This document shows positions 1 to 59,947 of a DNA stretch of 64,000 bases, in pieces. The DNA is from Amphirosellinia nigrospora (Eukaryota > Ascomycota > Sordariomycetes > Xylariales > Xylariaceae). Made by a program: the position numbers and the translations under genes. Within the stretch, counting starts at the first letter, position 1. Every line of letters begins with the position of its first letter. The notes under the pieces are model-generated. The model did no database searches. It worked only from the letters and a program-made list of their open reading frames with translations, and had not been told where the DNA came from. The stretch covers positions 186,001 through 250,000 of the forward strand of contig SCHM01000002.1 of assembly GCA_004123355.1 (NCBI GenBank), given 5' to 3'.

Positions 1-1879
1 CGGAGCCGCGAGCCCGTGCGCACCGAGTACAGCGCGACGGTGCCTGGGATATCATCGTGAGCGGCGGCCACGACGCCCGTGTCCGCGTCGTACGCGAAGC
101 CGATGTCGGCGTGTGCTGTGTTCCGGTAGTGCTCGAACTTGATTACCGGCTGGGCTACGGCATTATTCGGGTCATGATCGTTCCCCCATTTTCCCCTGGG
201 GTTTTCACCCCTTCCATCTGGCTTATTCCGATAACGGCGGTTGAAACGGCCCCGTTGGGACTTGTAAGAGAGGTTATTGTCAGTATTACGACTTTTCCCG
301 GCTGTGGTATTGGTCTCGACTCTCTCGCCGTCGTCCTCTGCGCCGCGATACGATCGCACGAACCGTAGGTCGTATACTCCGAGCTGGTTCTGCAGTCCGG
401 CGACGAGGACCTGGTTTCCACCGCCTAGACACCTTAAGTGCGTGATAGTGGAAGGGAGTTTGAGATGTGACCACGATGCTTGCGGTATGCGTGTATCGGC
501 GGTGAACAGTGCCCCCGGCCGTCCGCCAAATCGCAAGACTTCGGGCTGGCTTGGGTGGAAGTCGATGGCGAAACGTCGCGGAATAGATCCGCCTGAGACT
601 GCCGTTTGGGGTTGGGTGAGAAGGGCGCTGGCGGCATCAGCCAGCCGGCGGAATTGCCTGAGGCGCGATCCCACTTGGCAACGCCTCTGCTGGTGCCCAC
701 GAGACATCTCAGTGGTGAGGATTCTGGCGCAGGCGCAATGCAGTGCGCTTCGTCGCCCTTGCTTATCCCGTGTATTCGTACAGTTACCCCAGATCCTATA
801 TCCTATTCAGTAGTGTGAATACTGAGTGCCAACAATTATATAAGGAAGGGGGTAATGAAGCCTACGGGATGATAGGGCAGTAGTGAAGCCATAAGGCGTG
901 GAATCGGGGAAACCAAGATTGGGAGAGTGGACATACTGTGGAGAGGGTCTTCGTCATGGTGGTCATCAGTGGGCAGGAAATACCACAGAGTGGTGAGATG
1001 GGATGACGACCCTGATGTCACAAGAATAAGGTCATTGTACGCGCTATACTTCAGATTTGTCAAGCGTGGTCCAAGATGCTCCTCCCAGTGCGTACGACGT
1101 GAATATGGTAGCCCGTAGTTAGCTAGGAGACGCTGATCGAGGCTATATCAGGACACAAAGTGAAATATTAGTCAAGTTAACATGGCTAGAAGAAGAAGAA
1201 GCTATCAAGTGGTTTATCAAATGAGCATTGATTTTCGGTCGGGATACCTACTGCTTATTCTTATCTCGGGGGAAATATGTTGAGAGTAGCACATCCCAAT
1301 CATTCAGTACTAAACTTTTTTTAGTATATCTCGACGCCATCAGCAAGAAAAGAACAAAGCATAGGTGCTGCCAGTGACGTACTCGCATACGCAGCGCACA
1401 CTCCAGCTCCGTGGTCAGAGCCCGCGATACACATGCGCTTGACTTGGCTTCCTCGGCCGGATGGTTGATCCATCAGGACGCGGCCTTTGTGCCGTAGACC
1501 CTCGACGAAACAAAAGCTTGTATATCGGCTTTCATGGCGCCATACTCGCGGGCAAAAAAACCGCCTGTCAACGGCTCATGGAGCACTCTGGCGCGCCTGA
1601 TCCGACTCTTAGCGAGGTCCGAGTGCCGCAGGACCGTCGCGGCATCCTCATCGCGGAGCTTCCGCCTCTTGACATTGCCAGAGAACCACGCAGCATTTGT
1701 GGGCGCTGTTTTGCCGCTCTCGACTTTGAAATAGCGCTTCTTCTCGGCATCTTCACAGAACTGTTAGTTATATAAAAGAGCGGAATGGTGAATGCATCTA
1801 TGAATGCATCTACCTGCAGCAGAGCAAACTGTGCATCGAGGTTGGGGAACAGACCGAAATAGTACCCAGGGATATCCAT
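1..1879 (-). CDS. DCAF4-like WD40-repeat protein, 3' part cut off by window edge
   Basis: The gene starts at ATG 1877-1879 and runs leftward out of the window. Exon 1 (1855-1879) encodes MDIPGYYF. A 104-nt intron with a CTAAC branch motif follows, and exon 2 resumes as DAEKKRYFKVESGKTAP, giving the PGYYFD..KKRYF signature at the N-terminus of DCAF4/WDR21-type WD40 proteins. Later exons read NYGLPYSRRTHWEEH, SSPLRCLVGTSRGVAKW, FAIDFHPSQPEVLRFGGRPG, TITHLRCLGGGNQVLVAGLQ and YRNTAHADIGFAYDADTGVV, which are beta-propeller blades. DCAF4 family members are substrate receptors of CUL4-DDB1 ubiquitin ligases; that role is inferred. The frame appears broken near 645 and near 1490, each time consistent with one missing base. 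Exon borders between 800 and 1450 are approximate. The family call is good; the exact orthology is not settled. Confidence 0.72.
1789..1812. repeat. Perfect 12-bp tandem duplication inside an intron
   Basis: The unit tgaatgcatcta occurs twice back to back within the first intron of the DCAF4-like gene. It does not touch the splice sites. Confidence 0.85.
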
Positions 1880-2281
1880 ACTTCGTGTTTCTCTTGGTCA
1901 AGCGCGGTAGACATGTAGAGGTGCATAATCCAGACACGGGCATTTTATTTTCTCTAGAGGGAGTGCAGGTGGCAAGGTAATGTACCTATAGGTAGCAATC
2001 CTGCCCCTCCGTGGTCATAACGCCCAAAGTCAAAATATTTAGCCAGTGCTGCAAGCAACATTACAGCAGTCTTTACGCGTACCTGTGTCGAGGCAATTGG
2101 TACAAATCACAAATAGTTAGACATACACGGCCACAATGGTAATAATTTTACTTTCTTCTTATTTATTAAGTCTAAAAGACGTATAGGTAGGGTATATGAC
2201 CGAAGTCCGCCCGCCGCATCGTTCAGTTTACAAAAATGAAATTATAAAGAGTGATTGTTCGACCCCGAGCCAGACGGAGAA
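1880..2281. other. Intergenic: promoter of the DCAF4-like gene and 3' region of pma1
   Basis: This is about 400 bases between two minus-strand genes. It is moderately AT-rich, with short A/T tracts around 2130-2180. I see no gene in it. Confidence 0.6.
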
Positions 2282-5200
2282 CTATCTATACACCGAAAGG
2301 CAAAAGGTATGTAACACAAACAAAGAAGGGGGCCGAGTGGCGTGGCATGGCGGGTGATGCCGCGCCGTCTCACAGTTCGACCAATACGACGACTTTTCGT
2401 GCTGCGTGGAGACGCGTTGGAGTGAGACCACTGTGAAACAAGTTAGCTAGGGGGGGTCAATCATGCGAGGAAGATCCGTATAAAACTCACCAAAGTCCTC
2501 GAGGGAGCGTTGCTTCTGGCTTCCCTTGGGCGACTTGCCGTGCATAAGGTTGTCGAAGCCAGAGCTGTCCTGAAGGAAGTAGTAGATACCACCCATAACG
2601 CTGAAGACACCGAACGAGAAAATCCAGATACGGACGACAGCGACAATGTGAGTATAGCCGTGCTCGAAGAAGCCAAAGAGACAGAAGAAAGTGGCCAGAA
2701 GATCGACGACGAGAATGGCACCGGAAAGTTGCCACGAGGGGATGGAGGACCAGAAAGGACCATTGGCACGGGTAATGAAGATGAGCCAGTTCTCAGTGAG
2801 CGAGATCTCGAGGAACAGGACCTCGTCAAGGTTACCGTTGTTCTGAACAATACCGCCGTTCTCGCCGTTGACGTACAGGGTGGTGACAGTAATCCAAGTA
2901 CCAATAGCAAGAATGATTCCGAGGACGACGGAGAGACCCCACAGCTTGGGCAGGTTCCACTTGACGGGACTCATGGAGTACGGAGCATTGTCGTAGGCGA
3001 TGGCTAGGGTGGCAACGTCGGCGAAAATGGCAATGAAAACGACAAGCTCAATGTTGAGGGATCGGTTGAGGATGGCAATCCACAGACCCAAGTAGATCTC
3101 CAAGTGAAGAGAAAGAGCGATACGGTAGACAACGTAAGCGTACATGCGGTGGAAAATCTGGCGAGAAGTCTTAAGGGCGTCAATAATAGCACCAAGACCG
3201 GGAGCCAAGAAAACGATATCAGCGGCGGAACGAGCAGCATCGGAGGCACCCTCGACAGCAATACCAGTATCGGCCTTCTTTAGCGAGGGAGCATCGTTGA
3301 CACCGTCACCAGTCATACCGACAAGGTAACCACGCTGTTGCAGAATCTCGACGACATTGTACTTGTGCTGGGGGAAAACCTCGGCAAAACCATCAGCAGC
3401 CTCGACGAAATCGTAGACCTCAGAACCAGGCATGTCACCACCACCACCGAGACCGAGACGCTCAGCATTGTAAACGTTGGTACCAAGGCCGAGTTGACGA
3501 GAGGTCTCACGAGCAATACCGACAGCGTCACCAGTAAGCATCTTAATAGAAAGACCCATACGCTTAGCCTCGTTGATAGTGCGAGCAGTATCGTGACGGG
3601 GAGGATCAGAGCAGGGCATGATACCAAGGATTTCCCAGGCACCCTCGCCACGCTTGCGGGCAACACCAAGAGAACGGAAACCACGAGTGGCGAATTCAGC
3701 AACCTTGTTCTTGTAGGCCTGGTCAATATCCTCGGGAACGGGGTGGTCTTCAGCGACAGTCTTCAAGACGAACAGAGGAGCACCCTTGACGCAAGTGATA
3801 ACTTCGCCCTGGGGGGACTCGACGATGGCAGTAACCTTTTTGGAGACAGGGTCGAAGGGGAAAAACTCGCGAACGACGTATCGGGACAGGACACCCTTGG
3901 CACGGGGTAGTACTTGAGAGCCTTAAGGAAAGCCTTGTCGATGGCATCCATACCCTTCTTCTTGCGAGAAGCAGCCAAGCAAGCAGTAAGCATGAGGTCA
4001 TCAGGCTCAACACCAGCAACAGTGAAGGGCTCAGCAAGAGAAAGCTTGTTCTTGGTGAGAGTACCGGTCTTGTCAGAGCACAGGATCTCAACACCAGCCA
4101 GGGACTCAATGGCGGAGAGCTTCTGAACAATGGCCTTCTTCTTGGCGAGGTAGGCAGCACCGACAGCCATAGTGGTGGTGACGACAGCGGGAAGACCAAC
4201 AGGGACACCCACGATGGTGATGGCAAGGGTGAAGGCAAGAATGTCGACGATAGGGTTGGAGCGGTAGAAAGACGAGACCCAGACAACTAGCAGAGTGGCG
4301 ATGACGAGGACTAGCAGAATCGTACCAATGCCGTTTAGAACCTCAGTGAAATGGCCACTGCCGCCAGAAGCTTGGCTGACCAGGGCGGCAGCACGACCGA
4401 CGAAAGTGTTGTCACCAGTAGCAGTGACGACCATGAAGGCCTCACCACGCTTGACGGCAGAAGAAGCGAAGCACTGGTCATCCTTGTGCTTGTCGACAGC
4501 GAGAGACTCGCCGGTGAGGGCAGACTGATCAACTTGCAGGAAGGCATCGTCGGTGACGATACGACCATCAGCAGGAATAATGGTACCCTCTTCAACCTGG
4601 AGGATATCGCCGGGAACAACCTCAGGAGCCTCGATCTCCTGGAGGTTACCATTACGTAGAACAACAGCCTTGAGAGCAAGAGTCTTCTTCAACTCATCGA
4701 CAATCGAACCAGCCTGGTATTCCTGAATGAAACCAACAGCAGCGTTGAGAAGGAGCAGAGCAATAATGACACCGAAATCGACCCAATCTTCCAAACCAGC
4801 AGCGAGGACAGCAGCGGCCTCCATGACGAACTGGATAGGACCAACGAAGAAACCCTGTGACAAAACGGTTAGATCTGTCCCAACCTACAAGCAACCGGGG
4901 CAAGCTTACGAAGAACTTGAGCAGGAGATTCTCCTTCTCCTCCTTCATTTGATTGAGACCATACTTCCGGCGACGCTCAGTAACCTGGGCTATATATTCA
5001 TTAGCGACGATGTTGCCACTAAGCCCTGCGCACCTCACTTCTCCCCAGTGTCGTGGCGGTTGATCACACAGTTGCGCAAGGCCAAGCAGCGTTGAGACTT
5101 ACAGTCGGTCAAACCCGAACGAGTGTCGGTGTTGAGCATCTCCTCGGGAATCGTGCGGCCCTGACCAGGGCTAGCGCCCTCCTCCTCCTCTTCTTCCTCG

Positions 5201-5388
5201 CCACCATCTTGAGACTCGAGGTCCTCGATCAGCGCATCGATATCCTCATCCTCCTCCTCAGGCTCTTCGGCCTTTGTCTTGGTGGCAGGAACGTGCTCGG
5301 GGTTGTGGTGAGCTGCCTTCTCGTCGAAGTTACCCGACTCGATGTTGGTGTTGATTGCCGGCGCAGCGGCGGTATTAGGCTCAGCCAT
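2282..5388 (-). CDS. pma1: Plasma-membrane H+-transporting P-type ATPase (PMA1)
   Basis: ATP-driven proton pump that energises the plasma membrane. Exons: 5103-5388, 4910-4989, 2491-4854 and 2282-2430. The N-terminus carries the acidic [13 protein letters not shown] stretch typical of fungal PMA1, then [16 protein letters not shown]. The catalytic-aspartate motif [12 protein letters not shown], the [20 protein letters not shown] nucleotide-binding segment, the [18 protein letters not shown] hinge and ten expected membrane helices follow. One base is missing in a C run (G run 3904-3907 on the plus strand); with it the exon lengths sum to a whole frame of about 959 codons. The last intron (2431-2490) splits LEDF from [14 protein letters not shown], the C-terminal regulatory tail. 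After HEKS this reading adds about 35 residues not seen in the family, so the true stop is uncertain. The strong conservation argues that the frameshift is a sequence error. Confidence 0.95.
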
Positions 5389-19889: not shown

Positions 19890-21507
19890 TTACAGCTTCT
19901 TGCAGATCTCGATCCACTTGGCGGTTGAGAAACTCTTGGGGCGCTCGATGGGGGCACCGACAGCACGGTCGATGATGAGCTGGGGAAGCACACCAATGGC
20001 ACGAGACACGCCGAACAGGACGGTGTAGTAGTTGGCCTCGGTCAAGCCGTAGTACTGGAGGAGGACACCGGAGTGGGCATCAACGTTAGGGTAAGGGTTC
20101 TTGGTCTTGCCGTGCTCGGTCAGGACACCGGGGGCGATCTTGTACACTTGGCTGACGAGCTGGAACATGGGGTCCTTGGGCATCTTCTCCTGGGCGAAGG
20201 TGCGCTGGGCCATGTAACGGGGGTCGGTCTTGCGTAGGACGGCATGGCCATAGCCGGGAACAACACGTCCGGCATTCAGGGTAGACCAGAGGTAGTCCTT
20301 GATGTTCTGGTCGCTTAGGTCGTCACCGATGGCCTTCTTCATCTCCGTGAGCCAGTTCAACACCTCCTGGTTGGCGAGGCCGTGCAGGGGACCGGCTAGA
20401 CCGTTCAGACCAGCAGCCAGCGAGAGGAAGGGGGAGCTCAGGGCACTGCCGACAAGGTGGGTGGTGTGAGCGCTGACGTTGCCACCTTCGTGATCTGTGT
20501 GGATGGTGAGGTAAAGGCGCATTAGCTCAATGAAGTCCTTGTTCTCGCCGAAGCCGAGCTGGTTGGCGAAGTTGAAACTGTAGTCCTTGTCCTTCTGGAC
20601 CGGGGCAACCTTGCCACCCTTGAAGACATTCTGGTAGATGCGAGCGGCGATGGTGGGGAGCTTGGCGATCAGATCCATAGAATCCTCGAAGGTGTATCCC
20701 CAGTATTCCTTCTTGTTGATACCCTTGGCATAGGCCTTGGAGAAGGATGAGGTTTGTTCGAGAGCGGTGACGGCGAGGGAGAACTGGGCCATAGGGTGGA
20801 GGTCGGTAGGGCAGCGGTCGATGAGCTCCTCCACAAACTTGGGGATATCGGATCGGGCAGCCCACTCAGCGGACAGGTCACGGACCTGCTGCTCGCTGGG
20901 AACCTCGCCGGTTAGAAGAAGCCAAAAGAGACCTGTAGATATTTAGTTGTTGAACTCTCCGAACCCGACTGATTCGCGCTCCGACTCAACATACCTTCGG
21001 GTAGAGGCTCCTTGCCACCAGGAGCCTTAGGGAGAACCTCCTGGCACTCGGGGATGGTCTTGCCACGGAAGCGGATACCCTCCTCGGAGTCGAGAACGGA
21101 ACCCTCCCATACAAGGGACTTGATACCTCGCGCACCACCGTAGACCTGGTCTAGCGTGACCTTGTCGACGACCTTGGAGCCATGCTCTCTGTGGGGACGG
21201 TAAGCATTGGGTCAGCATATGGGGCGCACACGAAGAGCCTACTTTCGCAATGTCTTGATCTCGTCAATCTTCTCGGGGAGTAGCTCGGCGAAGCGCTCCT
21301 TGAGGGTCTACATGGGCACGGAACCATCAGTCACTCTAATTTGCAGGTGGCAACATGATTCAGGATTGGTTATTGGTTCCGGCTGCGGCATACCTGAGTC
21401 TTGGCCGAGTAGCATCGCGCAGCGTTGAAGGCCGTGGTCCGCGATGTGACAGGCGCTCGGAGCGAGGAGCGCAGAGCAGAGGAGCTCAGACGAAATGTAG
21501 ACGCCAT
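19890..21507 (-). CDS. cit1: Mitochondrial citrate synthase
   Basis: Condenses acetyl-CoA and oxaloacetate to citrate in the matrix. Exons 21394-21507, 21243-21307, 20995-21188 and 19890-20932 sum to 1416 nt, giving 471 residues with no break. The first exon encodes a classical Arg/Ser-rich mitochondrial presequence ([19 protein letters not shown] ... ARCYSAKTQ). Family motifs present are [48 protein letters not shown], the catalytic-histidine segment [15 protein letters not shown] and the catalytic-aspartate segment [14 protein letters not shown]. It ends WIEICKKL without a peroxisomal SKL signal, so the mitochondrial isoform is the best call. The neighbour YHM2 carries its product across the inner membrane. 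Confidence 0.96.
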
Positions 21508-32058: not shown

Positions 32059-34306
32059 TTATAGCTTGGGTGTGATCTTGGAAGCTTCCTCATTAATCTC
32101 ATCGTACATTCTATCGATTTCAGCTCTGAATTTCCTGGCAGTTTGAGGTCTCTTGAGTTTGAGGCTATCATTCATGTTAGCAGGCTTTATTCGGGGTATG
32201 TGACGGCAAAATGTTGACTTGGGATACTTACGTAGGGGTAAATAGCTCATTTTCAATGCTAAATGGCTCAACATCCAAGACGCAGTTTCGTACGCGCTCG
32301 TAGCCATTGAACTTATGACTCTTTCCAATAGCGTCGAGATGTTTCAAGACAGCCTTGACCACCCGAGGATCTTTGGCCGCATCTTTGACAGCTGGGATAT
32401 CTTCAGGAACAACGGTTCGGTTGAGGACTTGGCTTGCAAAGGGTGCAAAGTTGACCGGATCCACGCCAAAGATGGCAACCAGTGAAGACTGGGTACCTTC
32501 GCCGTGCACGTAAGCCATGGCAATGAGGTTAGAGCTGCCCATGTATACGTTCTCAATACGTTCAGGCGAGATATACTCTCCTTGGGACAGTTTCAAAACA
32601 TTCTTCTTGCGGTCAATAATTCGGATACGACCTAGTTCGTCAAATTCAGCAATATCTCCAGTATGGAACCATCCATCAGGGTCAAGCGCCTTCCTGGTTT
32701 CGGCTTCGTTCTTGTAGTATTCGCGGAATATAGAGGTGCCCCTTAACAGAAGCTCACCACGGGGTCGTGGCTTGTCCGTCACAAAATACTCTAGGTCTGG
32801 TTGAGACTCTAGGCAAACCTCGGTACTAGGCAAGGGGCCGCCGTTGTTGCCCAACGAGAAGTCCCCTTCTGTCTGACAAGATGTAGAGGCGTAGGACTCG
32901 GTCAAACCATAACCCGAAACAAAGTTATTGCCGAAAGCAGCCCGGAGGAACTCTTGGACCTTGGGGTCCAATTGCGCGCTCCCGCTCACCATCGAGCGAC
33001 ATCTATCCATGCCGACAGCAGCACGGACCTTGGGGGTCCAGATGCGGTCGTAGAGAAAGTGCTTGTTATGGGCCTTGCCGGGACCCAGCTTCATATTTGC
33101 CAATTTGGTGTCAATCACCCGGCGAGAGAGCGCACCTCTAAAGCCATCGGCCTCGATTGTCTGAGCCTTGAGGCCCATGTTGAAACGGTTAAATAGACGT
33201 GGGACCGAGGGGAAACCGGTGGGCTTGAGGATCTTCAAATCATCGACCAGTTCCAACATGTCTCCGGAAATAACCTATCGAAGCGCCCTCGGCAAGCGCG
33301 GTCTGGTCAATGAGTCGCCCGTATATGGGCTACTGGCAGAATGAAATATTTGTGTCCTTGCGTGTGTATTGACCAGTGGCTCGACCAGCAGCAACACCCG
33401 CAACACAGTTAGCGTGTGTGAGCACGACACCTTTGGGATCGCCGGTGGTGCCGGAAGTGTAGTTGATGGTGATGATATCTTCAGGACGTGGGGGACGCGC
33501 AGGGTGTGCGACCTTAGCTCCCAACTCCTCTACTTGATCCATGGAAAAGATCTGGACTCCATGCTGCTCCGCAATGGCATTCAAGATGGCCCTCTTGGAG
33601 TATCCGGATTGTTCACCAGCATCCAAGGGGTCCATACAGATGATCAACTTCAGCTGGGGTATCCGCGGCGCAATAGCGAGGAGGGTTGGGACGTGAGGCA
33701 GCGATGTCACGACGCAGGAAAGCTCAGCGTGCTTGATGATGAACTCGGATGTGTCGGGGCCAAGGGTCTCGTAGAGGGAAACAGAGAAGAGAGATTGAGT
33801 AATAAGACCGAGATCTATATTTGGTGGTTTAGCATCCATAGAGCTATAAAAGTTAGAGTAGGAGCAAAAGGATACCCACCTGCGATCTGCCACTCGGCAC
33901 GGTTCTGGCTCCAGAGGCCGACGCCGTGATTCCCGGGCGGAATGCCAATCCGGCGATGAAGTTCGAAGATGCCCGATCCAAAGTTCTTGGCGCGGGATGC
34001 TACTTCGGCGTATGTCTTCCAGACATAATTATCCTCCCAGCTCGTGGTAGCCGGATTCCAGATTCGGGTGCCCAAGCACTTATTATTGGGATAGTGCTTG
34101 ACAGTGTGTTCGAAGAGATCGTAAAAAGTGCGAGTCTCTGGGTCATAGGTCGCAAGCAAAGGCTTGTCCTGGAACTGCCAATGACGGTAGATAGGCGTGC
34201 GGCCTTCCCTCTCGGTACCAGGGATGGGCACGGAGTAGGGGGAGCCAGGCGGAGGTGCTGTTGCTATCTCCTGGATATAGGCCTGGATCTGGGCAGGCGT
34301 CGCCAT
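32059..34306 (-). CDS. Long-chain fatty acyl-CoA synthetase
   Basis: ATP-dependent activation of long-chain fatty acids to acyl-CoA, an ANL-superfamily enzyme. Exons 33880-34306, 32232-33814 and 32059-32164. The AMP-binding P-loop YTSGTTGDPKGVVLTH is present, as are GYGLTESYAST, DGWFHTGDIAEFDELGRI and the acyl-CoA synthetase motif RKKNVLKLSQGEYISPERIE. The frame is interrupted between about 33268 and 33346; the gap corresponds to five missing bases at three places around LPVAHIYGRLIDQ and GYFRGDM. With these the length is 707 codons, typical for the family. The protein ends ITPKL; PKL resembles, but does not match, the canonical peroxisomal SKL signal. S. cerevisiae Faa2 ends in EKL, so a peroxisomal role is possible but unproven. 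Confidence 0.93.
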
Positions 34307-34803
34307 CGTGTCAGATGTCTGGGAAGGGTACCGACGGCGCGGAAACCAATGACGGAGAGAGAACTGAGGTGTGACAAAGAGGGTTCGACTCTGCACGTGG
34401 TATTGGTCGCTTTGCGAGCGTCAGTGCCTATAACTCGGAGAAGAATACGACTACAGCATCAAGCACGCGCAGCTACCCGTCGCAAGCAGACTGGCAGTGC
34501 ATGTGGTCTCCAAGAGGATGCAATGTAATATAAAATCAGCAGTGTGAGATGGACTTACGGGCAGCGAGCTGGTGGTCAGACAGGCTATGTCCGGACAAGA
34601 GAGGCGTTGACGTTGCAGGCAACACGAAGGACAAATATCGCGATCACAGGATAGCAAAAGAACGACAGCGCCGGTGCTGGATGAAGATGACGGACCATGC
34701 GCGTGGATGCCCATTCCCATTCCAGAATTCGCAATTTAGCGTTGCTAGTTAAGGGTCCACCGACGCCGCTAAGCGCTCGAAGCCGAGGTTCCTTTCTGGA
34801 TAT

Positions 34804-36750: not shown

Positions 36751-37376
36751 ATGTATTCCTCTAATGCCATCATCTTAGCGCTGAGGGTCGCGCAATTTAC
36801 TCTGGCGTTTGTTGTGCTGGGGCTTTCGGCTTATGGTATGTCACAGGACGAAATATTGATGAAAAGGGAGACCAGCAGACAGGGCTAACATGCGGTCTTC
36901 GCAGTTGCCCACTGGTATAATGTCGACATTATGAGCGCTCCGCCTCCGCCCATCAGCTGGCTACTGTTCGTATCGTTATTTACCATCATTTCTATCGGAG
37001 TCCTTGAAGGTCTTCCAAGATTCGCTCCTCGATGTGTGTGCTCTCTCAACGGGATAAAAATGGCAGGACTTGAGAGATTAACCCTGGTCTAGTTTTCCAC
37101 CCCTATGCCGCCCTTTCTCTCGAATTCGGCAATGCCCTATTTTATTTCGCAGGGTTTATTGCCCTGTCGACTTTCATGAGCAGGTTGCTGTACTGCCGCG
37201 GAAGCGTGTGCGGCGCCGCTCGGGCGGATGTTGCATTTGGTATCTTCCAGTTCCTACTTTGGGTTGTCTCGACCTCCCTGGCGGGAAGAGAAGTTGTCAA
37301 GAAAGGGTTCCGCCGCTCCAGCAAGTCGCAGGCCCCTTTAGGTGTATCGCCGATGAAGGAAGCCCCGGCTCCTTAA
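36751..37376 (+). CDS. MARVEL-domain four-helix membrane protein, 165 aa
   Basis: Exons 36751-36835, 36905-37033 and 37093-37376 sum to 498 nt without a break. Four hydrophobic segments are visible: IILALRVAQFTLAFVVLGLS, ISWLLFVSLFTIISIGVLEG, ALFYFAGFIALSTF and DVAFGIFQFLLWVVSTSLAG. The third loop has a Cys pair (LYCRGSVCGAAR), and the C-terminal tail is basic and cytosolic. This is the layout of fungal MARVEL proteins (a superfamily that includes Nce102), which organise plasma-membrane or vesicle membrane domains. An upstream in-frame ATG at 36679 would add 24 Arg/His-rich residues; 36751 is preferred because the membrane helix starts there. Confidence 0.85.
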
Positions 37377-37724: not shown

Positions 37725-37761
<37 letters not shown>

Positions 37762-39009: not shown

Positions 39010-40659
<1,650 letters not shown>

Positions 40660-41300
40660 GGGGGAACTAGAGTTAATGATCTTTGACAAACATGAATAAA
40701 AGGAGAGGAGACAGGGATAGCAGTTGAGAATTATACCCTTTGGATAAGTAGAATAGGCCTGCAATATCAAGATGTCACTTCGTCAGAACCAAAGATGCGA
40801 TTTGTAGCACGTCTGAAGTAATCGATTCTAGTTGTGATACGGTTGAACCCATACTACCCTACAGGTGCCCAGTTGGTACTGGGTAGGCATTCTTCTAAGG
40901 TCGGCATAATCTGCGGGACGAAAGCGGCTTGCAGATGCAATTATAGGCACATCATAGTAGGATTATTTATATTCAAGAAAATGCCGAGAATATATTAGTT
41001 CGGCAGACGGTATGCCTCCTTATAAATCAGCATGAATACTGGTGCCCCTCTACAGTACTATTTAAGTACTATACTGTATCTTAAACTGTGGTGGGGAGAG
41101 GTCTGACGCCATTGGTCGGAGCACCCCTGCTCACGAAGACCAACACCATCACTTCGGGTCCCATTAGTTTAGGAACACCACCAAGTATCACCAGATTTAA
41201 ATCCCACTGGAACTTCGCCCCATGTACCAAGGACTACCGCAAACTTTCTACCTCGACATTGTACTCTCCAGCCGCTATATCAACAACATAAGCCGTCACA
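40660..41300. other. Intergenic, promoter of EMC7 gene
   Basis: This is about 640 bases with repeated tagtac/gtact steps around 41050-41080 and no open frame of note. Confidence 0.6.
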
Positions 41301-42246
41301 ATGCTTCCATCAATACCAACGATACCACTCGCCCTGGCCCTATCTCACCTCCTCTCCCCAGCCGCCGCAGCGACAGTAACATTCAGCGTCCCACCATCAG
41401 CGCAGATCCCGAACCCAGCCGCCTTGCCGCCCTCGACACACGCCACACTGACGGCGCTGGGCGCCTCGTACGCGGCACCTCTGACGGTGGACAACACCTT
41501 CGTCTTCCGGAACGTGACGCCGGGGTCATACCTGGGGATGTATTCTGCGCCACGCACGGCTTCGCGCCCCTGCGCGTGGACGTGATCCCCGTCACCTCGG
41601 GCGAGGGGAACAAGCTTAAAAAGGAGGACGTCATCTTGCGGGTCTGGGAGACGTTCCGCGGGAATGACTGGGAGAACAAGGGCGAGGAGATCAGGCCCGC
41701 CACGCCTGGCGGGGCGTTCGCCGTCAAGGCCCTCGGGTCCAAGGTTTATTATACGGAACGTGGTGGTTGTGAGTTCATTCCTCGTCTATGCGTATAGGTG
41801 GCAGGCGGGAAAGGAAGAGTGAAGGGACTAGATAAGCTAACTGCTGTTTTGCCCACAGTCTCCATCCTCAGCATCCTCAAGAACCCCATGATCCTCATGG
41901 GTCTGGTCAGCTTGGCCCTCTTCATCGGCATGCCCAAGCTAGTTGAGAACAGTACGTTTCCAATCCACATAGACCATCTCCCTTATATTACCGTCTCCTT
42001 ATATGAAGGAGACTCTTGACTGACACTGCCTCCTTTTCCATAGTGGATCCCGAGACCCGCGCCGAATTCGAAGAGCAGTCCAAGAAGAACCCGATGAATA
42101 GCTTAATGGGCGGTTCCCAACCCGGCAGCAGCCCAATGGGCAACTTTGATATGGCTGGATTCCTAGCCGGCCAGGGGAGTGGCAGCAAGGAGGAAGCACC
42201 AGAAGCGAGTGCCAAAAACGGCGCGAAGAAAGGCGGGAAAAAGTGA
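41301..42246 (+). CDS. emc7: ER membrane protein complex subunit 7 (EMC7)
   Basis: Subunit of the ER membrane insertase complex. Exons 41301-41768, 41859-41951 and 42044-42246. With one base missing in the G run 41534-41537 they sum to exactly 255 codons. There is an N-terminal signal peptide (MLPSIPTIPLALALSHLLSP), then a lumenal beta-sandwich (DNTFVFRNVTPGSYL ... HGFAPLRVDVIP). GGAFAVKALGSKVYYTERGG and ILKNPMILMGLVSLALFIGM then give the membrane helix, followed by LVENMDPETRAEFEEQSKKN and a Gly/Lys-rich cytosolic tail ending KNGAKKGGKK. The NPM..M membrane helix followed by DP(E/D) is shared with animal EMC7. Confidence 0.9.
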
Positions 42247-43377: not shown

Positions 43378-44397
43378 TTAGAAATCACCACCATCGTAGT
43401 CCCCCCCATCCTGACCATCGTTGTACCCATCCTGATAAGCCTCCTGCTCATGGTCGTCAATGGCATCGGCAATCAACGCACCACCAAGAACACCGGCACC
43501 CAGACCGAGCGCTGCACCACCGACAGTTCCTAGACCACCTGACTTTTTCGGGGGTTGTTGCTGGTAGCCACCACCGTAACCACCGCCACCATAGGGCCCT
43601 GGTTGTCCATAGCCGCCACCACCATACCCGTAGCCCTGGGGGGTGGTTGTCCATACCGCCGCCTCCGTACCCACCTCCATACTGTCCCTGCGGTGGCCCA
43701 TTACCATAATACCCCTGTGGTGGGGGCTGGAATACCCATATCCCTGCGGGGGTGCCGATGAGCTACCGGGATATCCTCCGCCGCCATACCCGCCGTGGCC
43801 GCCGTACGAGTCCTGCTTGTTTTTGTTGCCGCCGAAAAACTTGCCTAGAAGACCCGGGATTATCGCCGCCGCCGTTGCCGCCGCCTGATGAGCGCGGTGG
43901 CAGCTGGTCAGGGAATGGCGATGAGCCTGAGCCCCTGTACGCTGGATCCGATGTCCTGTGCTGCGGGCGCGTGCATTCTCTTCTTCTTGGAGCTGGCGCG
44001 CCAAACGGGCATCATCGTCTTCGCTATGATTGTGATAAGACCTCGCTTCACCGGCAGACGAGCCCTCGTCTCTAGCGAAGGGATTCTTGCTGTCGCTGGC
44101 CTTATTGGGCCTGAGCCGGAGGTGTAACCGGGCGGTGGACCGGCAGGTGCTGCGTACGGATCCTCGGCTGGAGCGGTGGGCTTATCCCATTGTGACTTCT
44201 TTGTGATTGTGTTGACGTAGAACCTGGTGAGGCGGGTGTGTTAGATTACTGCGATGGCAGTTCATGGAAAGATTATTGCTCCCGGTCGGGGTAAAGCATG
44301 GAGGCAAGGCATTGATGGACTTACCATTCTCTGTATTCGTTGTTCCACCGTGCTATCCAGCCCGCAGGGACCTCGGGGGTGGAGGGTGATCCGCCAT
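43378..44397 (-). CDS. WW-domain protein with Gly/Tyr/Gln-rich C-terminus and glycine-zipper segment
   Basis: The gene starts at ATG 44395-44397. The first exon (44325-44397) and the exon from 44223 join to form one WW domain: AGWIARWNNEYREW, then FYVNTITKKSQWDKPTAP. An acidic segment follows (SEDDDARLARQLQEEENAR), then a low-complexity region with GGYGGGGY, PQGYGY and GQPGPY repeats. A hydrophobic glycine-zipper stretch comes next (TVGGAALGLGAGVLGGALI), and the tail is acidic (DGYNDGQDGGDYDGGDF). WW domains bind proline motifs, and the zipper could self-associate or enter membranes; both are inferences. At least five apparent single-base losses, all at C/G runs, break the frame, so the exact protein cannot be given. 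This architecture recurs in filamentous ascomycetes, but I know of no assigned role. Confidence 0.75.
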
Positions 44398-47601: not shown

Positions 47602-49961
47602 CTACATTTTATACCATATCCTCTCATATCTTCTATCCTCGAATAGCTTCGCCGCTTCGATACAGTAAGTGGCACGTTCCAGTCTTCTCTCGCTAGCATA
47701 GCAGATGAGAACAGCATCAAGAATACCCGAGAGAATACCTTCCATAGCTCCTAATATGGCCCATCCAATGGCACTGGCTATGATACCTACAACGTACGCA
47801 TATGCGCTTCCCGTGATACTAGGATTGCCTGGGACTTGGATTCGTAGTTGCCGGGCCGTCATCACCCACGCGGCAAATCCTAAAGCAGTTGCCATTACAG
47901 CGCGCGTAGCATGTAGCAGTAGTTTGGCTATCCTATACGGTACCAAAGAGGCAGTTTGGTTTCGCTGTGAGAAGGCGCTTGGTGTGAGCGTTGTGGTAGG
48001 TCCAGTAGCCAAGAACTGAATTCTACCTAGCTGCGAGCGGATTCCATCAACGGTAGGGAATGGACTGAAGCATAGGTTACGGCTAAGGGGTTAGTTAGGA
48101 CCGTAACCGGCCTCGGCGCAAGTTTCCACCCAATAAATTCAAAAATGCCGGCAATGCGCCGAGGGAGGATGAGAATGGCAGCCGGACAGCAAGGGATAAT
48201 AGGGTTGAAGCGCAAATCGTGCCGAAAACCGTTGTGGTAGAGTGCCCTAAGGCCCCCTTAACGATATCGTTCGACGACGCAAGCGTCTGAAGGTTTCTGT
48301 GGAAGTACCAGTTGGACACGGTACCTCCGTTGTAGCACGGACAACACCACTCAGAACGGAGAGTGTCCAGACGTACATTAGGAAGAAAAGATAGCAAGCC
48401 ACCACGTTGCAGTGCCAATCACAAACGCCGACAATTTGGTCGAAAAGTAGCCTCCCAGGAAGACACGAGTGAACATCCAGAGCCACACCCAAGTCCATCC
48501 AACAACGAAAGCAAGGGCGCCAAACCCAAGCAAAACGAGGGCTGGATTCGCGGCCAGGATTCGACTGGAAAAGTCTAGCATATCGACGGCCCTGTGGATT
48601 TCATGACGTCCCTTGTACAAGAGCCAAACCCAAACAATCGAAAGGACTCCGGGGATGATGGCAGATACCTCATAACAACATCTTGAAAACGTGATCCATG
48701 ATCTGGCCCTTGGAAACTAGAGATCATGGGGTATAACGAGAACGAGAACAGCACATGGGAACGCCAAAGAGGATTAATAAGACCAGTTGTATGAAAGATC
48801 TGAGTGCAGCCATCCATACCAGCGCAACACCAATCGAGACAAGTGTATCGACGGCTAACAGATAGAAGGACGATTCAGTGTCGTGTATATGGTATCACCT
48901 ATCTTTCTGGGGTGGGTCGAAGTATGAAGCCATACAAGAATGAAAGTTGCAATGAGCGAAGCAACAGCAATCAAGTACAGCCAGGCGAAGAATTGGTCGT
49001 GCACAAAAATCTCACCATACATCCGAGGTTGTGGAGGAGCAGGGATAACTCCAGGTTGCTCAGTTACCTGCTCTTCCTCGTCCTCATCTTCTCAGCAATA
49101 GCTTGGCGCATAAGACGGTCGCGTTCGAGGTTAGAGTGTGCTCTGCCGGCCGCACTCTTCGAACTGCCTTTTGAAGATCTGAATTGTTGGAATGCGGGTG
49201 GCGACGAGTCGGTTGGGGTCTCCAAGAGAAGATCTTCAGGTACCGAGTTGTCTATGACTGTTGATTCCAGCCCAACATCCACCATCTTTCCCCCACCCTC
49301 GTCGCTGTCCGAGTTTTGTCGCGTGCTCATCTGAGCACCAGCCATAGGCTGCTCTTCCCTTGGCTTCCGTTTGGCTTGTCTACCCTTGAAGCTTGATTCG
49401 CCGTTCCAACTACTCTTGATCCCCATCGGGCGATCCCGGTCTTCGTACAACCTGCTGTCGCGTTCCCCGCTCTGGTCTAGTGATGCCCGGCTTGCGTCAT
49501 TCTCCGAAGCGGAGCTATCGTCCATGCGACTCGAGACAAACACACGGCGCGAGTGCTGCAGAGCACGGAAATCAGCAGCCTCCCTGACATCTTCGTCGTC
49601 GTCATCATCTCGAAACTCGTTCAGGGCGCTGTGGAATAGTGGTGCATCGGGAGCCGTATTGTATCGGGAGGCGAAACCACCGAACCTGGACTGGGACGGC
49701 TGGTATGGATTCCCGAGACGTGACTGGTAGGAGAACCGGGCAGGCTGTCTCGAGAATCTGGGAGGTGTTTCTGATGGCTGTCGATTGGAAGAGTCATTAC
49801 CATCGGGTGGTGCTCCAAAGTTAGAGAGACGGGACTGCGACTGAGAAAGGAAGCGGGAGGCATCTGGACGAGGTCGTGATTAGACTCGTAGGGGCCTTAA
49901 TTTTGGAGGGTCTTGGGGGCACACGAGCGATCCCCAGAAACAACTTACATTCTGAAAACAT
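47602..49961 (-). CDS. Pns1-like choline-transporter-like (CTL/SLC44 family) membrane protein
   Basis: Multi-spanning plasma-membrane protein of the choline transporter-like family; the substrate in fungi is not established. A tiny first exon (MFSE, ATG at 49959-49961) joins a long disordered cytosolic region starting YASRFLSQSQSRLSNFG, rich in Ser, Arg and Asp. Membrane segments follow: FAWLYLIAVASLIATFILVW, RSFIQLVLLILFG, IIPGVLSIVWVWLLYKGRHE, LVLLGFGALAFVVGWTWVWL and TATWWLAIF. The family-typical part comes next (TVSNWYFHRNLQ, ALGHSTTTVFGTICASTLLS, RRIAGIFEFIGWK). It ends GMAEGI-like GAMEGILSGILDAVLICYA and YERIWYKM. At least seven apparent one-base losses split the frame, mostly in C/G runs (for example near 48661 and 48757), so the exact protein is uncertain. 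The family call is strong. Confidence 0.82.
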
Positions 49962-51704: not shown

Positions 51705-52653
51705 ATGTCTTCCCCGCCATGGAATTATATAGCCAAGCTTGTCTGCATCGGAGACTCGGGCTGTGGCAAGTCGTCTTTAACCATTCGTCTGTGCGAGGGC
51801 CGGTTTAGTCCCAGCATGACGTGACCATCGGCGTCGAGTTCGGTTCGCGAATCGTGCCCGTCGGCCCGCCGCACTCGAAACAAAAATCGAATCCTCTCTC
51901 ATCCTCTCTCGAAAGCCAAACCCTGCCGTCCACAATATCAAATAATCCGGGTGATGGCAAGAACGCCACCGCTGATGAAGAGCAGAAGCATATGAAGCTC
52001 AGCCTCTGGGATACAGCGGGACAAGAGATATAGTGAGTAGTTTGTGATGGCCACTTTGCATCTTCCAAAGGCCGTAATATGTCACCCGAAGCCTTTGATG
52101 ATCGGCGCAATCCGTCAGCTCAGATCCTGGCTCTCTTGTTGGCCTCCGCAACGTCAGCTAACTTATATCCTTAAAGTAAATCTGTCACGCGGAGCTACTT
52201 TCGAGGCGCATCCGGTGCCCTCCTTGTATTCGATATTACTCGACGAGCGACCTTTGTCCATGCGACCGACTGGCTGAACGATCTGCGCGCAATAGCCGAG
52301 CCCGATATTGTTGTAATCCTAGTAGGCAATAAGCTGGACTGTGTGCAGTCAGAAACAGCCGCTGGTAGCGATAATAGCGATAAACGTGAGGTAACATTTG
52401 CCGAGGCGCAAGAATGGGCGCAAAAGAACGGCGTGCTGCAGTACGTCGAGACGAGCGCTAAGAGTGGCGAGAACGTTGAAGCCGCCTTCATGCGGGTTGC
52501 TGAGCGCATTTTCGAAAACATCAATGCCGGCAAGTACGATCTGAATGATCGTAGGTCCGGCGTCAAGGGGCCTGGGCCCGGCACAGCCGCTACACGAGGC
52601 GTGAAGCTCTCCGCCAACGACGGCAAGGGATCCTCTGCTGGGGCTGTTGTTAA
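51705..52653 (+). CDS. Rab-family GTPase, Rab4/Ypt4-like, with interswitch insertion
   Basis: Membrane-traffic GTPase. Exons 51705-52032 and 52177-52653. G1 is GDSGCGKSSLTIRLCEGRFS; switch I is HDVTIGVEFGSRIV, where GVEFGSRIV is typical of the Rab2/Rab4/Rab14 group. G3 is LWDTAGQE, continuing across the intron as IYKSVTRSYFRGASGALLVF. G4 is LVGNKLD and G5 ETSAKSGENVE. About 40 extra polar residues lie between SRIVPV and MKLSLWDTAGQE, inside the interswitch. One base appears missing near 51814 (CC to C), and one in the G run 52640-52643. With the latter the protein ends SAGGCC at the TAA 52651-52653, supplying the prenylation signal that the raw frame lacks. The corrected length is 268 residues, exactly in frame. 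S. pombe Ypt4 is the nearest named fungal relative I can suggest. Confidence 0.88.
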
Positions 52654-53760
52654 TGATTGGAAGATATGAAGATTCAAAGAAGAACGAGAAGAACAAGAGG
52701 ATATATCTATCTAATTTAATATGAGAGATGAGACTTGGAAGAAAGATGAATAACCTGGGTAATCAACCCGCATAACGCCGCCGAATAAGCTCTCGGCATT
52801 GTACATATTATTATTAACACGGATACAGGCGGCACACGACACGCATTTTTTGGTCATGATACCCTGAGTAATAATGTTTACTGGCACCTAGTTCGTGGGG
52901 AGGAAGGAAAGAAAGCAGGAGAAGGAGAAATCGAAGAGCCAGGAAGCAAAATGAATAATAACTGGCTACACATCATCCTCGCTAAATTTTGCTTATCATA
53001 TATCTGACTACCTACGAGACACTATAGATGAACGCAGCCGCATGTGCCATTGTTAGTATCATCATCCCTTGTTGTCGACCCAAGCACTGTTACGATGTCA
53101 CCGTAGAGCGATATAGATATGATGTTACGAAACATGTATCACACATGAAATACATAGCGATGTATAGCGTTGAGACGTGTATTAGAAAAGCTATAATGCG
53201 ACCGATTGGCTGGCCGAGCATCAGCGAGATAGAGTTCTTTTTCCTGCAATTCCCTTCTATTGTCTTTTCGCTCGATGTGATACTCTGATTTGAGAAAGAA
53301 AAGGCGACGTGTCTCCAGGTGATGATGCCAACACGGGCAAATGCTCCCATTCCGCCCTACACTAATAAAAGAACCCCAACTCCTCCGCCCGCATCCTTTT
53401 CTTTTCCCGTTCTTCCTCGGTCCATTTCATGCAAAGTGGTGTAGGAGATTGAAAGTATCATTATTACATCGGCGGTAAAGGGCAGAGAACCGTGATTGTG
53501 GTTTTCAGGGATGGAGAGTGTGACATAGAAACATGAAGGAAATAATTTCCTCATTTTTTTGCTGTCCGTTGAGAGTCTGACATGTTTCAAGGAGACCATT
53601 ACATGTTACAACCTGCTCGCAACTTCCCAACATGTTGTACACGCACAGAGACTGCCATAATTGCGTGTTCTGTGCTAAAAATAAAGAAAGTCAGACCGAC
53701 AAGATTTTTAGGAAAGCCCGTCAACTCTCATTGCTCCCGTATAATATATGCAGGAGTGCT
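52654..53760. other. Convergent 3' intergenic region (Rab / Pmt2)
   Basis: Only UTR-like AT-balanced sequence with short frames on both strands; no gene seen. Confidence 0.6.
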
Positions 53761-56343
53761 CTAGTCCGAGATTCTCCATGTGTCAAACCACTTCATATAT
53801 TTGTACTGCTGGTTGCTTCCGGTCATACCCCAGCAGATGGGGATGAAGAAAATATAAAGGCCGATAATAATAGCATATAGGACACTATAAATAGACCACT
53901 GTATCAACTTCTGTTGTTTCCTCAATGTGAAGTCGACGAGGAAGCCCAGGGCGAGGATGGCAAAATAAAGTGCAGGGTAGTAATGGTGCACATAGGTCAC
54001 ACGCGCCATGACAACAAATGGGAGATAATGAAGGAACCACCCAGAACAGGGTAGAGGCCAGCGTAGTGAATTTGGTCGATGTCGTATTGCGAGAGGTCTC
54101 TAAAACCCCTTTGCCATCGGAGTATGTACCAAACAGTGACCAAACCGACAAGGCCGAGGGAACCTGTGGAGACCCAGTAGACAAAGGGGTTGCCGAGCAA
54201 GAAATACTTGACGATCTTATCATCCCAGCCACACATGCGTAGACCAACATTGAGAATGGGCCATTGCCACCACTGAGATGCAAGATCGTCTTGCTTATCA
54301 GGGTCTGGGACGAGTGCATTGTTGGATGTCATCATAGCCACGTTCAGGTGAATAAAGTCGTGAAGGAATGGCGACTTGTACTTGCCAGGGTCTCCAGGGG
54401 CACTAGACAGATTGTTAGTAGTTTGAATTCCGACTAGGCCGTATCTACTTACGTTTATCATTCGTGTGGGCTTCCACATTCCAGTGAGTGAAGGCATCTT
54501 TTGGATTGTTCTTCTTATCACAGGTTACTTCAATCTGCTTGAAACCCCACTGGGGAAGGTTGACATTAGCAGCTCGGAGGTAACACCCCATCACAGCGTT
54601 CTTCAATCTAAAAGCGGTAGTCAAAGTCCGGAGCTTGCTCTTGTCACGCGACGACACGTCCCTGACAACTTCGATTTTCCAATGATCCTTGTCATCGCCA
54701 ATAGTCAGGTTCCCGTAGCAAGAAACTTCCTTCTGGCTCTTTGTAACGGGTGCCGAGATATCATGACTATGAAGATTGCGTCCAGTCTGTGTATGGATCA
54801 ACCGAACGGTATCGCCATTGTGAATGAGCTGAGGCTCAGACTCCAGAGTCCAATCAGCTACGGAACGGTTAGGATAAAACCACCATTCATTGTTGGCGTC
54901 TTTATGGTGGTAACATGTAACTTGCTGCTGTGAGGAGCCTTCGGGGTAAGCTAATGGGTGTTAGTTGATCTCCTCAGTCGCAGCAAAAATACGTACTTTG
55001 GACATGGCTATGAAGGAGACCGCCACCGTAGCCCATGTTTTTCAGTGTAACCTTGGAGCCCCAGGCTACCTCTAGAGGCGAATTACGGCCAATCTCGCTG
55101 CCTTCGAGGTTTGCTTGAAATAGTGAACTCATCTGGGCATCGCCTGGTCCACTCCGGGTCAAGATGGCGAAGTGCAGGGCAAAGGAGAATAGGTACACCA
55201 AGAAAGGGATAACATGAGACCGACTACGCGAGCGCTAAGATGAGCAGCGAGGACCGGGTAAGAAATGCGCGTGTTGCCAAATTTGTTCCACAAGTCCTCA
55301 ATGGTGTACAGACCAACCATCGCAGTTACGAAAAGTCCAACTAGCTTGATACTGCAGACAAAGCCCAAGCTAAGTCCCGTCATGAACAGCCAGAAAAACC
55401 ACTCTGGTTCAAAGCTGTACCTCTGTTGACCGTGAAACTTTGCCCAGCAGAAGACAGTGGCAAAAGTACCGAACAGCAACATGGAGTCAAGAAGGATGAA
55501 CCGGCTGATAGTCGTGTAGGAGTTTTCGCAAAGAACCATTAGTGTAACTAGCCAGACAGCGGGACGCTTGAGCCTAAGTTCCATGGCTGTGTAGTACGCC
55601 AAGGGCACACATAGTATACCCCAGAAGGCGTTGAAAGCTCGCATGAAAGTGTAGTTGAGTTCCGGTGGATACGTCTCGCCGGATTTGAATTCGAAGGACC
55701 CATTATACCCAGCCAGTACGCCAGACAGACCGACAAGAATCTTGCCTAAGGGAGGATGGCTGGGACGATATTCAGCAGCTATCCTAGGTGAAGGTATAGG
55801 GGTACATGACTAACACATCGAAGAACAGTTCACGTTTAATGTAGTGTGATCCGAATTTACCAAAACTATATCGCGGAATGGCTGGTTAGCTTTTAAGCAG
55901 CAACTGGGAGGGGTTCGGGAGACGGTCGGGGGAGGGCGTACTGAGCTTCCTGTATGATGCTGTTAGTAATCGGCATTGAAAGACACGCAAAGACGTCGGC
56001 AAAGGGGTTCAGAACTTACATCCCAGGTGACAATGGGGCTAAGGCCAATCTTCCACGTCCGTGTGAAGACGGCCAAGGCTGTGAAGATCAGGGGAGCAAT
56101 GATGAATTCCCACTCGTCGAGGATCTGAAGGGCGGAAGGACTCTGAGGTAGATGCATCAGCATACAGCTCTTGGATAATTGCTATCCTTCCCCTACCTTC
56201 TTTGCTCCGTGTATCTTTTTCTCCTCCGGTTGAGGTAGAGGTACAATGGCGCGGGGACTGCTGAGCCGGGCACATTCCGTCGACGAGCGGCATCACCTGC
56301 TGGGTCAGCGCCAGAGGCGATTGTCGCGGTTGTTCTCCGCCAT
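53761..56343 (-). CDS. pmt2: Protein O-mannosyltransferase, PMT2 family
   Basis: ER enzyme transferring mannose from dolichol-phosphate-mannose to Ser/Thr of secretory proteins. The likely start is ATG 56341-56343 (MAENNRDNRLW). Domains in order are EWEFIIAPLIFTALAVFTRT, IVTWDEAHFGKFGSHYIKRE (catalytic DE in the first loop, split by an intron) and HPPLGKILVGLSGVLAGYNG. These are followed by FMRAFNAFWGILCVPLAYYT, CENSYTTISRFILLDSM, and a MIR domain from EVAWGSKVTLKNMGYGGGLL through ITCDKK-like EVTCDKKNNP. A C-terminal multi-helix block ends YKYMKWFDTWRISD. There are about five introns. At least five one-base losses interrupt the frame, including G run 54397-54400 and sites near 54038, 55209 and the N-terminus. 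The sequence matches the PMT2 subfamily rather than PMT1 or PMT4. Confidence 0.92.
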
Positions 56344-57457: not shown

Positions 57458-59713
57458 TTAGTCGTCGCGCTGGTCGAGCGCTGTATACCTAGCGCCACTC
57501 GCTGGACTGCTGCTTGAGCCGCGGGTTTGCCCAACCATCCTGCTTAACCACTCGCCTACGCGACCACGTGAGTTGCGACTCTCGGATCGCTGTCGCGGCG
57601 TGGGTTTTCCATCTACGACATTGACAACCGGTGGGTCGATATCTAATGGGGGAATGGTTGCATCTGACCCGAGTGGTCGTCCTCGAAGATCGAGTGACGG
57701 TACGGGAGACCCAGCTCGGAACAGAGAGCCAGTTTCGGATCGTACCCCAGGGGTCCCAATGGCAGTGCTGGCATCCCCAAATAATGAATCCATGTCTTCT
57801 AATCTAACACCACAAGTCTCGGGATAAATGAAGTACACTATTAAACGTTGTTAGCAACGATGCCTTACACACGGTAGGGTTGATCAAGATACTTACCAAC
57901 CACAAAACTGACAACGCAGAAAAATGCATGAAGTAGGTAGAGTCGCCATTTGATCCATTCCTGAAGGATGGGAGTCATTTCTCCCACGAGCCAATTGAAT
58001 GCCCAATTCGAAGCAGTCGACAGACTCGCTCCCTTCGATCGAATACTAAGGGTAGGATTTCCGGTGGGTAGAGCCATGGAATTGGGCCCCAAGAATATCC
58101 AAAGGCAGCATTGTATATCATGACGAAAACAACAACCAATGTGGGCGTAGACTTCACATCCAGATAGATGAAATAGGAAACCAGCGAAAGCGATATAGCC
58201 ATAGCAACTGCGCCGCTCAGGAGGATAACTCGACCCCATCGATCCACTATGTACCAGGGAGGAATCGTGGAAAGCAGATAGGTGATACCGTTGATTCCCG
58301 TCATTTTGATGGCGTCGTGGCCAACCCAACCAGCCGACTCGAAGACGTAAGGTGCATAGTAAGATATGACGTTAATACCGTTTAGTTGAGCGAGAGCTTG
58401 CGCCGACATAGCAATGAAGACTCGTGTCTTGTAGCGACGGAACATCTCGCTATAAGTTCGTTCTCCCTCCATGCGTTGAAGCAGAACGTTCATCTTGATC
58501 TCGCGGTACTCATCTCTTGCTTTGGGTTGTGGATATCGCCTCCGCCATACAGGTTTGCTATGACGACAATTCCCTCCTCATCGTGATCGTTATCAAGCAG
58601 CCATCTTGTAACCAGTTAATATGACGAATAGGTAGGGAAACGGCCATCACTTACCTCGGCGACTCGACAATAATCAAACTTCCCAAGCCTAAAAGAGCAC
58701 CCATGACGCATTGCATCAAGAGAGGGATGCGCCATGATAGGTTGCTGTCTATGTAACCACAGAAGTAGTCCACCCATATCGATGTAGTGTAACCAATAAT
58801 GTTCCCTGAAAATTCAATACAAGCAAGTTTGCCTCGGTTGTGGGGTGGTGAGATCTCGGACTGATAGACAGGCACGATAGTCGATAGTGAGCCGACACCT
58901 AGACCGGCAACAATTCTGCCCAACATCATCATTGGCATATTAGTTGAGAAAGTTTGCAAAGCTCCGCCTACAAAGAATATCATTGAGCCATAGAGAATAG
59001 TTTTGCGGCGGCCAATAATGTCACCGACTCTCCCAACAATTAGAGAAGAAATAAAAGCACCGATCTCTAAAATAGCAACCATAGTACCGATTTCGGCTCT
59101 AGAGGGGTTGTGGAAATAATCTCTAAACCATGGGCCGCTGATGGGTTGATTAGCTCTTGATCTCGCCAAGCAAACCGGAAGTGATAACATACGTGATAAT
59201 ACCTGACATAACACCCTGGTCATAGCCGAATAGAAATACACCCAGTGATACAAAAATACTCGTAAAATAGCTTAGAACGATTAGTTACTAGTACCACGAT
59301 ACGTTCCAGCTTGGACAGGACGTACATGAGGGCCTTGCCCGTGAAACCGTTTACCCCCGTGCCCGGCATGATGGCGGCTATACAACGCTCCCCTGGGGAT
59401 ATGCGGCGCGGAGGAACGTCGGGATCTGGATAGCCTCCTTGTCGATCAGGCCCACAGAGTTGGACCTGGAGCGATAGCTGTGCTCGTCGACGGAACGCTT
59501 GAACTGGACGCGTTTATTGTGTTTGGGGTGGCGCTTTAAGGCGCCCGAGATGAGGTCGTCTTTAAGGGAGGTGTCGGCGAGGCTCTTGCGAAGGGGATCC
59601 TCCTCATCTGCCAACTGCTCGGCTAGATCGCCCGTGTCGGTCCAGGAGTCCGAGTCGGCAGAGTCGTCGGAGCGACGCTCGTGGGAGAAACGATGCCGGT
59701 GGTCGTCGAGCAA
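57458..59713 (-). CDS. MFS sugar-porter-family protein with long cytosolic N- and C-terminal tails
   Basis: Twelve-helix major facilitator protein of the sugar porter family. Family signatures present: FGYDQGVMSGIIT, GRVGDIIGRRK, VPVYQSEISPPHNRGKL, VESPRWLLDND, DRWGRV, PWLYPPEILPLSIRSKGA and YFIYPETCGVRLEDMD. The usual QLSGIN/QLTGIN of helix 7 reads AQLNGINVISYYAP. The N-terminal tail is about 110 residues (DSDSWTDTGDLAEQLADEED, RSRSNSVGLIDKEAIQIP). The C-terminal tail of about 110 residues is Ser/Pro/Arg-rich and ends RYTALDQRDD. One-base losses are evident at C/G runs 58050-58052, 58524-58526 and 59390-59393. The start is uncertain: an ATG at 59945-59947 could lie upstream through another frame change. 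Such tails occur in fungal sugar sensors and regulated transporters; transport versus sensing cannot be decided here. Confidence 0.85.
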
Positions 59714-59947
59714 TGACGTCGACTGGCCGTGGTCTGAACGCGAGGCGAGGGTGCGGAGGGGATGTTGGAGGGAAGACGGTTTGGAGTTGAGGGAGGAATT
59801 TTGGAGAAGATGGCGCTGTTAAGCAGCAGCGCCGGCCCGCAGTGATATTGATGCTGAAGAGAGACGTCGAGAAGGGGGTGGAGTGAGGGTTTCTGGCGGT
59901 AGACTAGAAGAAGCAATCAGCTGTCGTTGACCTGGCCCGATGACCAT

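What the first reader, a model, noticed from the sequence alone, without database searches (positions are those of the whole stretch)
1..59947. Deletion-type frame breaks at homopolymers across at least ten conserved genes
Frames of pma1 (G run 3904-3907), the large WD40 gene (28697-28699), EMC7 (41534-41537), Rab (52640-52643), Pmt2 (54397-54400), the MFS gene (58050, 58525, 59391), the acyl-CoA synthetase, and the WW, Pns1-like and DCAF4-like genes all break. In every case bases seem missing, never extra, mostly in runs of G/C. Adding the expected base gives exact codon arithmetic over all exons where I could check. Simultaneous pseudogenisation including pma1 is implausible, so this looks like residual long-read deletion error. 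Any automated annotation of this contig will contain many false short or split genes.
Basis: partly seen in the sequence, partly recalled or inferred. Interest (0 to 1): 0.7.

Follow-up and report, generated by a model that had tools for sequence, protein, structure and literature searches.

The report
Missing-base assembly errors across fungal genome
Many genes in this fungal DNA look broken because the assembled sequence has lost one or a few letters at scattered places, which is best explained as an ordinary sequencing artefact rather than biology.

Summary
The frame breaks are in the sequence, and those that could be measured have bases missing. In the window, homology on both sides with no room for an intron supports breaks in pma1, EMC7, a Sugar_tr-family MFS gene and an acyl-CoA synthetase; Pmt2 is supported but depends on splice sites read by eye. 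Rab, WD40, WW and Pns1-like rest on reading frames or a motif. MFS 59391 and the DCAF4-like gene were not verified. Citrate synthase and a Cys/Met enzyme beside them show no break.

The effect is not local. The window lies in a 48.1 Mb, 11-contig genome. In six conserved families, 19 of 47 piece-to-piece junctions were cleanly measurable: 18 short (14 by 1 nt, 3 by 2, 1 by 4), one +4. A frame HMM called 25 missing-base and 3 extra-base events. Sibling tRNA genes show deletions and no insertions, so the lesion does not depend on translation.

Chaperonin, HSP70 and actin-family genes are hit, so pseudogenisation and ribosomal recoding are very unlikely. Residual consensus deletion error, favouring G/C runs but not confined to them, fits best.

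The parts
2450..5388 (-). pma1 (plasma-membrane H+-ATPase); frame one nucleotide short at about 3904-3910; introns 4855-4909 and 4990-5102 are ordinary
27156..30971 (-). large WD40-type gene; frame change at about 28697-28699 of the missing-base kind, by reading frames only
   Evidence: weak WD40 matches; not called by the HMM
32231..34420 (-). acyl-CoA synthetase (AMP-binding); three breaks by eye within 33250-33360
   Evidence: searches do not cover the break
41201..42243 (+). EMC7; break of the missing-base kind at about 41534-41548
43381..44240 (-). WW-domain gene; frame change of the missing-base kind by eye
47605..48500 (-). Pns1-like (choline-transporter-like) gene; two frame changes of the missing-base kind by eye
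   Evidence: (E 0.00026)
51809..52666 (+). Rab-family GTPase; frame change at about 52640-52643, next frame ends in Cys-Cys-stop
54000..55809 (-). Pmt2 (protein O-mannosyltransferase); one nucleotide short just after an intron, at about 54397-54400, given the splice sites read by eye
57868..59271 (-). Sugar_tr-family MFS transporter; breaks at about 58050 (homology) and 58526 (by eye); 59391 upstream not verified
19893..21211 (-). citrate synthase, no break: an ordinary intron lies where the looser HMM called one
39347..40657 (+). Cys/Met metabolism PLP enzyme, no break seen: profile 49-172 and 172-381 joined by an intron

Best explanation
The breaks are consensus errors of the assembly. The assembly of a haploid-looking filamentous fungus was left with residual deletions, mostly of one base and less often of two or four bases in runs or short tandem repeats, scattered over many contigs and favouring G/C runs. 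A loss in an exon shifts the frame; a loss in a tRNA gene shortens the tRNA. Shown: the lesions, their one-sided direction, their spread over at least 7 of 11 contigs, and their presence in RNA genes. Inferred: that the DNA of the strain carries the longer versions, and that the source is long-read sequencing without enough accurate-read polishing.
For: 18 of 19 cleanly measurable junctions in six families are short, 14 of them by exactly 1 nt. HMM: 25 missing to 3 extra over 28 own-genome loci and the window, 24:3, 35:7, 51:13 and 81:20 outside the window as the penalty is lowered. By eye, 15 of the 17 short stretches fetched round such junctions hold at least one missing-base break; the other 2 show only introns. 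Sibling tRNA copies: 5 of 22 in the Ala, Val, Met, Thr and Lys groups lack one or two bases, none has an extra one. pma1 has no intact close copy among the 20 matches. Runs of six or more G or C number 47 against about 64 expected in 266 kb. Published nanopore data and assemblies show this class of error (passages seen).
Against: One clean junction reads +4 (96-residue overlap in a piece with stops). Inside the window the strict HMM finds 1 break only. HMM call sites are near a G/C run of four or more in 4 of 24 cases against 5.6% background, p 0.04, which is weak. A fungal nanopore paper reports more insertions than deletions after polishing. No reads were available, so the longer version of the DNA was never seen directly.
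Confidence: 0.97

Rival explanations
1. True mutations: pseudogenes, or a hypermutator strain that loses bases from runs in the living genome.
For: Loss from runs and short repeats is also what mismatch-repair defects give (recalled); single tRNA copies can be pseudogenes.
Against: Chaperonin, HSP70, actin-family and pma1 genes are hit together; the chaperonin matches look like about one haploid set, and pma1 has no intact close copy among 20 matches.
Confidence: 0.015
2. Translational recoding: ribosomes shift by one base at these places, so the short frames are real and functional.
For: Many sites lie in runs, which can be slippery (recalled).
Against: tRNA genes, which are not translated, show the same deletions; losses of 1, 2 and 4 bases occur without one shared motif (by eye).
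Confidence: 0.005
3. Misread introns: the frame changes are ordinary splice junctions.
For: True for one looser HMM call (20915) and for 2 of the 17 fetched stretches (L045, L051); 19 of 47 family junctions have room for an intron and were not counted.
Against: The 19 counted junctions overlap, abut or are spaced to within 5 nt of the profile distance, so no intron fits; missed introns should give both directions about equally (inference).
Confidence: 0.005

Closest known systems
Residual indels in nanopore-only fungal assemblies (Drechmeria coniospora, PMC7500977; filamentous ascomycetes, PMC9453082)
   Same: Frame-breaking small indels, mostly in homopolymers, in a fungal assembly of few contigs (passages seen).
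   Different: PMC7500977 reports more insertions than deletions after polishing; here deletions dominate. The platform of this assembly is unknown.
Nanopore systematic errors after polishing (Homopolish, PMC8011154)
   Same: In its table for one bacterial isolate, deletions outnumber insertions after Racon, Medaka or MarginPolish (passages seen).
   Different: Bacterial isolates with a known truth; here the truth is inferred from conserved families and sibling tRNAs.
Nanopore read error profile (PMC8486125)
   Same: Deletions are the commonest error, and runs and short repeats cause about half of errors (passages seen).
   Different: Describes raw reads, not a finished consensus.

Membership tests
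Residual consensus deletion error | One-sided: bases missing rather than extra | tested here: met
   18 of 19 clean junctions short; HMM 25:3
Residual consensus deletion error | Genome-wide and blind to function, including RNA genes | tested here: met
   7 of 11 contigs; tRNA siblings. Intergenic DNA could not be tested
Residual consensus deletion error | Concentrated in homopolymers | tested here: inconclusive
   9 of 15 determined sites leave a run of three or more (by eye) against about 5% of window bases in runs of four or more (arithmetic); HMM sites only weakly enriched
Residual consensus deletion error | Absent from accurate reads of the same strain | not testable with these tools
   no reads held
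Pseudogenes | Dispensable genes, or an intact copy elsewhere | tested here: not met
   pma1: no intact close copy among 20 matches. For the other genes copies were not searched one by one
Programmed ribosomal frameshifting | Confined to translated sequence | tested here: not met
   deletions in tRNA siblings

The most novel reading that the evidence does not exclude
The genome really carries the shorter sequences and the cell restores missing bases in both mRNAs and tRNAs after transcription: nuclear, genome-wide insertional RNA editing.
Probability: 0.002. Interest if true: 0.97.

Novelty: not a real feature. Interest (0 to 1): 0.08.

Why it matters
It matters to users of this assembly rather than to biology. 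HSP70 and TCP1 matches give 13 clean shortfalls in about 25 kb of matched coding DNA, roughly one per 2 kb and a lower bound (own arithmetic). If that holds elsewhere, a large share of genes would be annotated short, split or as pseudogenes, and claims of gene loss or new short proteins from this assembly need reads first.

Tried and rejected
Local explanation (a badly polished contig end): rejected; the asymmetry is at least as strong outside the window and in conserved families elsewhere.

HMM call at 20915 in citrate synthase: rejected as an intron. Other looser HMM calls in the window (missing at 49089 and 52177, extra at 28124 and 54448) were not used as evidence; 54448 lies at the donor of the Pmt2 intron.

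rRNA as a second non-coding test: the SSU search failed twice with a machine error; 5S copies were listed (33 matches) but not fetched. A literature search for the assembly by size and contig number found nothing. Rows dropped before the count of 19: 19 junctions with room for an intron and 9 with a mismatch over 5 nt in poorly aligned or divergent stretches; one of those with room (C4, HSP70-like, +38) looks by eye like a one-base loss (L046) and was still left out. The 40 tRNA loci are 40 of 58 listed matches, and the first 20 were picked for low score or odd length, so they give direction, not a rate; Glu (2 copies, one shorter) and Asn (3 copies, one shorter and one different in several ways) were left out of the 5 of 22.

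Full report
Setting. The window is G000:C4:186001-250000 of a 48,114,038-base genome in 11 contigs, about 50% G+C. Its gene content is that of a filamentous fungus; the pma1 pieces match chain 1mhs_A (plasma membrane ATPase) best, which I recall to be that of Neurospora.

The named genes. pma1: piece 3766-4884 matches 1mhs_A residues 117-458 and piece 2450-3922 matches 433-905, without gaps near the break. Residue 433 falls one nucleotide apart in the two frames, so the DNA is one nucleotide short, with no room for an intron. EMC7: profile positions 2-42 and 48-107 lie in two frames, with 14 nt of DNA for 5 unaligned positions. MFS: Sugar_tr positions 217-381 and 379-432 lie in two overlapping frames at about 58050, one nucleotide short; a second break at about 58526 was read by eye, and Pfam gave no match for the 37-aa piece between. 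Acyl-CoA synthetase: AMP-binding positions up to 206 and from 248 have about 20 nt less DNA between them than the profile wants; by eye there are three breaks; PDB alignments did not reach the place. Pmt2: PMT2 chain 6p25_B is matched at 366-533 and 534-658 by the two pieces; an intron lies between, and with the splice sites read by eye the frame is one nucleotide short. Rab: the shift falls just before a Cys-Cys-stop end in the next frame. WD40, WW and Pns1-like rest on reading frames and weak matches. MFS 59391 and the DCAF4-like gene were not verified.

Intact neighbours. Citrate synthase pieces match chain 8gqz_A at 64-131 and 130-475 with an ordinary intron between. The Cys/Met PLP enzyme runs 49-172 and 172-381 across an intron. 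The citrate synthase case shows that frame changes alone can over-call breaks.

Is it local? A frame model trained on this genome, with introns and equal cost for missing and extra bases, was run on 28 loci of the genome and the window. At the strict setting it called 25 missing-base and 3 extra-base events, one of them in the window. As the penalty was lowered, the counts outside the window were 24:3, 35:7, 51:13 and 81:20, and in the window 1:0, 1:1, 4:2 and 10:4. Missed introns should give both directions about equally (inference), so the excess is not an intron effect. The window is not worse than the rest by this measure.

Conserved families. For Cpn60_TCP1, HSP70, E1-E2 ATPase, Sugar_tr, GTP_EFTU and actin, I compared the DNA distance between neighbouring matches with three times the profile distance. 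The searches list best candidates only, so these are samples. Of 47 junctions, 19 have room for an intron, 9 differ by more than 5 nt, and 19 are clean. Of the clean ones 14 are short by 1 nt, 3 by 2, 1 by 4, and 1 reads +4 where two pieces overlap by 96 residues. None reads +1 or +2. Of 17 short stretches fetched round such places, 15 hold at least one missing-base break by eye and 2 (L045, L051) show only introns. The 2-base and 4-base losses lie in runs or short tandem repeats by eye.

Non-coding test. Of 58 listed tRNA matches, 40 were fetched. One or two bases are missing in 2 of 4 Ala-AGC, 1 of 7 Val-AAC, 1 of 5 Met-CAT, 1 of 3 Thr-AGT and 0 of 3 Lys-CTT copies; no copy in these groups has an extra base. 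One of 2 Glu-TTC and at least one of 3 Asn-GTT copies are also shorter, with direction less sure. The lesion thus occurs where no ribosome reads.

Which bases. With those counts 9 or more of 15 at 5% has probability 7e-9, but the classification is by eye. G or C runs of six or more number 47 against about 64 from an order-3 simulation in 266 kb, while A or T runs of eight or more number 25 against about 10. HMM call sites show only weak enrichment, 4 of 24 against 5.6%.

Alternatives. Pseudogenisation is contradicted by the set of genes hit and by the lack of an intact close copy of pma1 among the 20 matches; the nearest relative, at C4:3.64 Mb, 54% identical in its best piece, is itself in several frames. 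Recoding is contradicted by the tRNAs. Editing that also mends tRNAs is not excluded by sequence, but is extremely improbable.

Literature. I saw passages of PMC7500977, PMC8011154, PMC8486125 and PMC9453082, and listings only of the other papers. They describe this class of error in nanopore reads and assemblies; one reports more insertions than deletions after polishing, unlike here. The platform of this assembly is unknown.

Conclusion. An ordinary artefact.

Noticed in passing
window 37728-37760: A run of 33 G, in 266 kb where the next longest G or C run is 8; it may be a sequencing artefact of another kind or a real tract.
   Followed up: no
L009, L010, L011 (C4:1-50 kb sampled), L033 (C5:3.0 Mb), L034 (C6:3.0 Mb): Blocks of only 10-19% G+C, against about 50% elsewhere; possibly repeat-induced point mutation blocks (inference).
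   Followed up: no
G000:C4:3636738-3638145: A relative of pma1 (54% identical in its best piece) matched in six pieces, two of them with stops inside.
   Followed up: no
window 25653-26114 and 37074-37373: An Nrd1/Seb1 domain 2 piece and a MARVEL-domain piece, genes that the finding did not mention.
   Followed up: no
33 matches over G000: Dispersed 5S rRNA genes, 115-132 nt long in the listing, which would be a good further test of the deletion pattern.
   Followed up: partly
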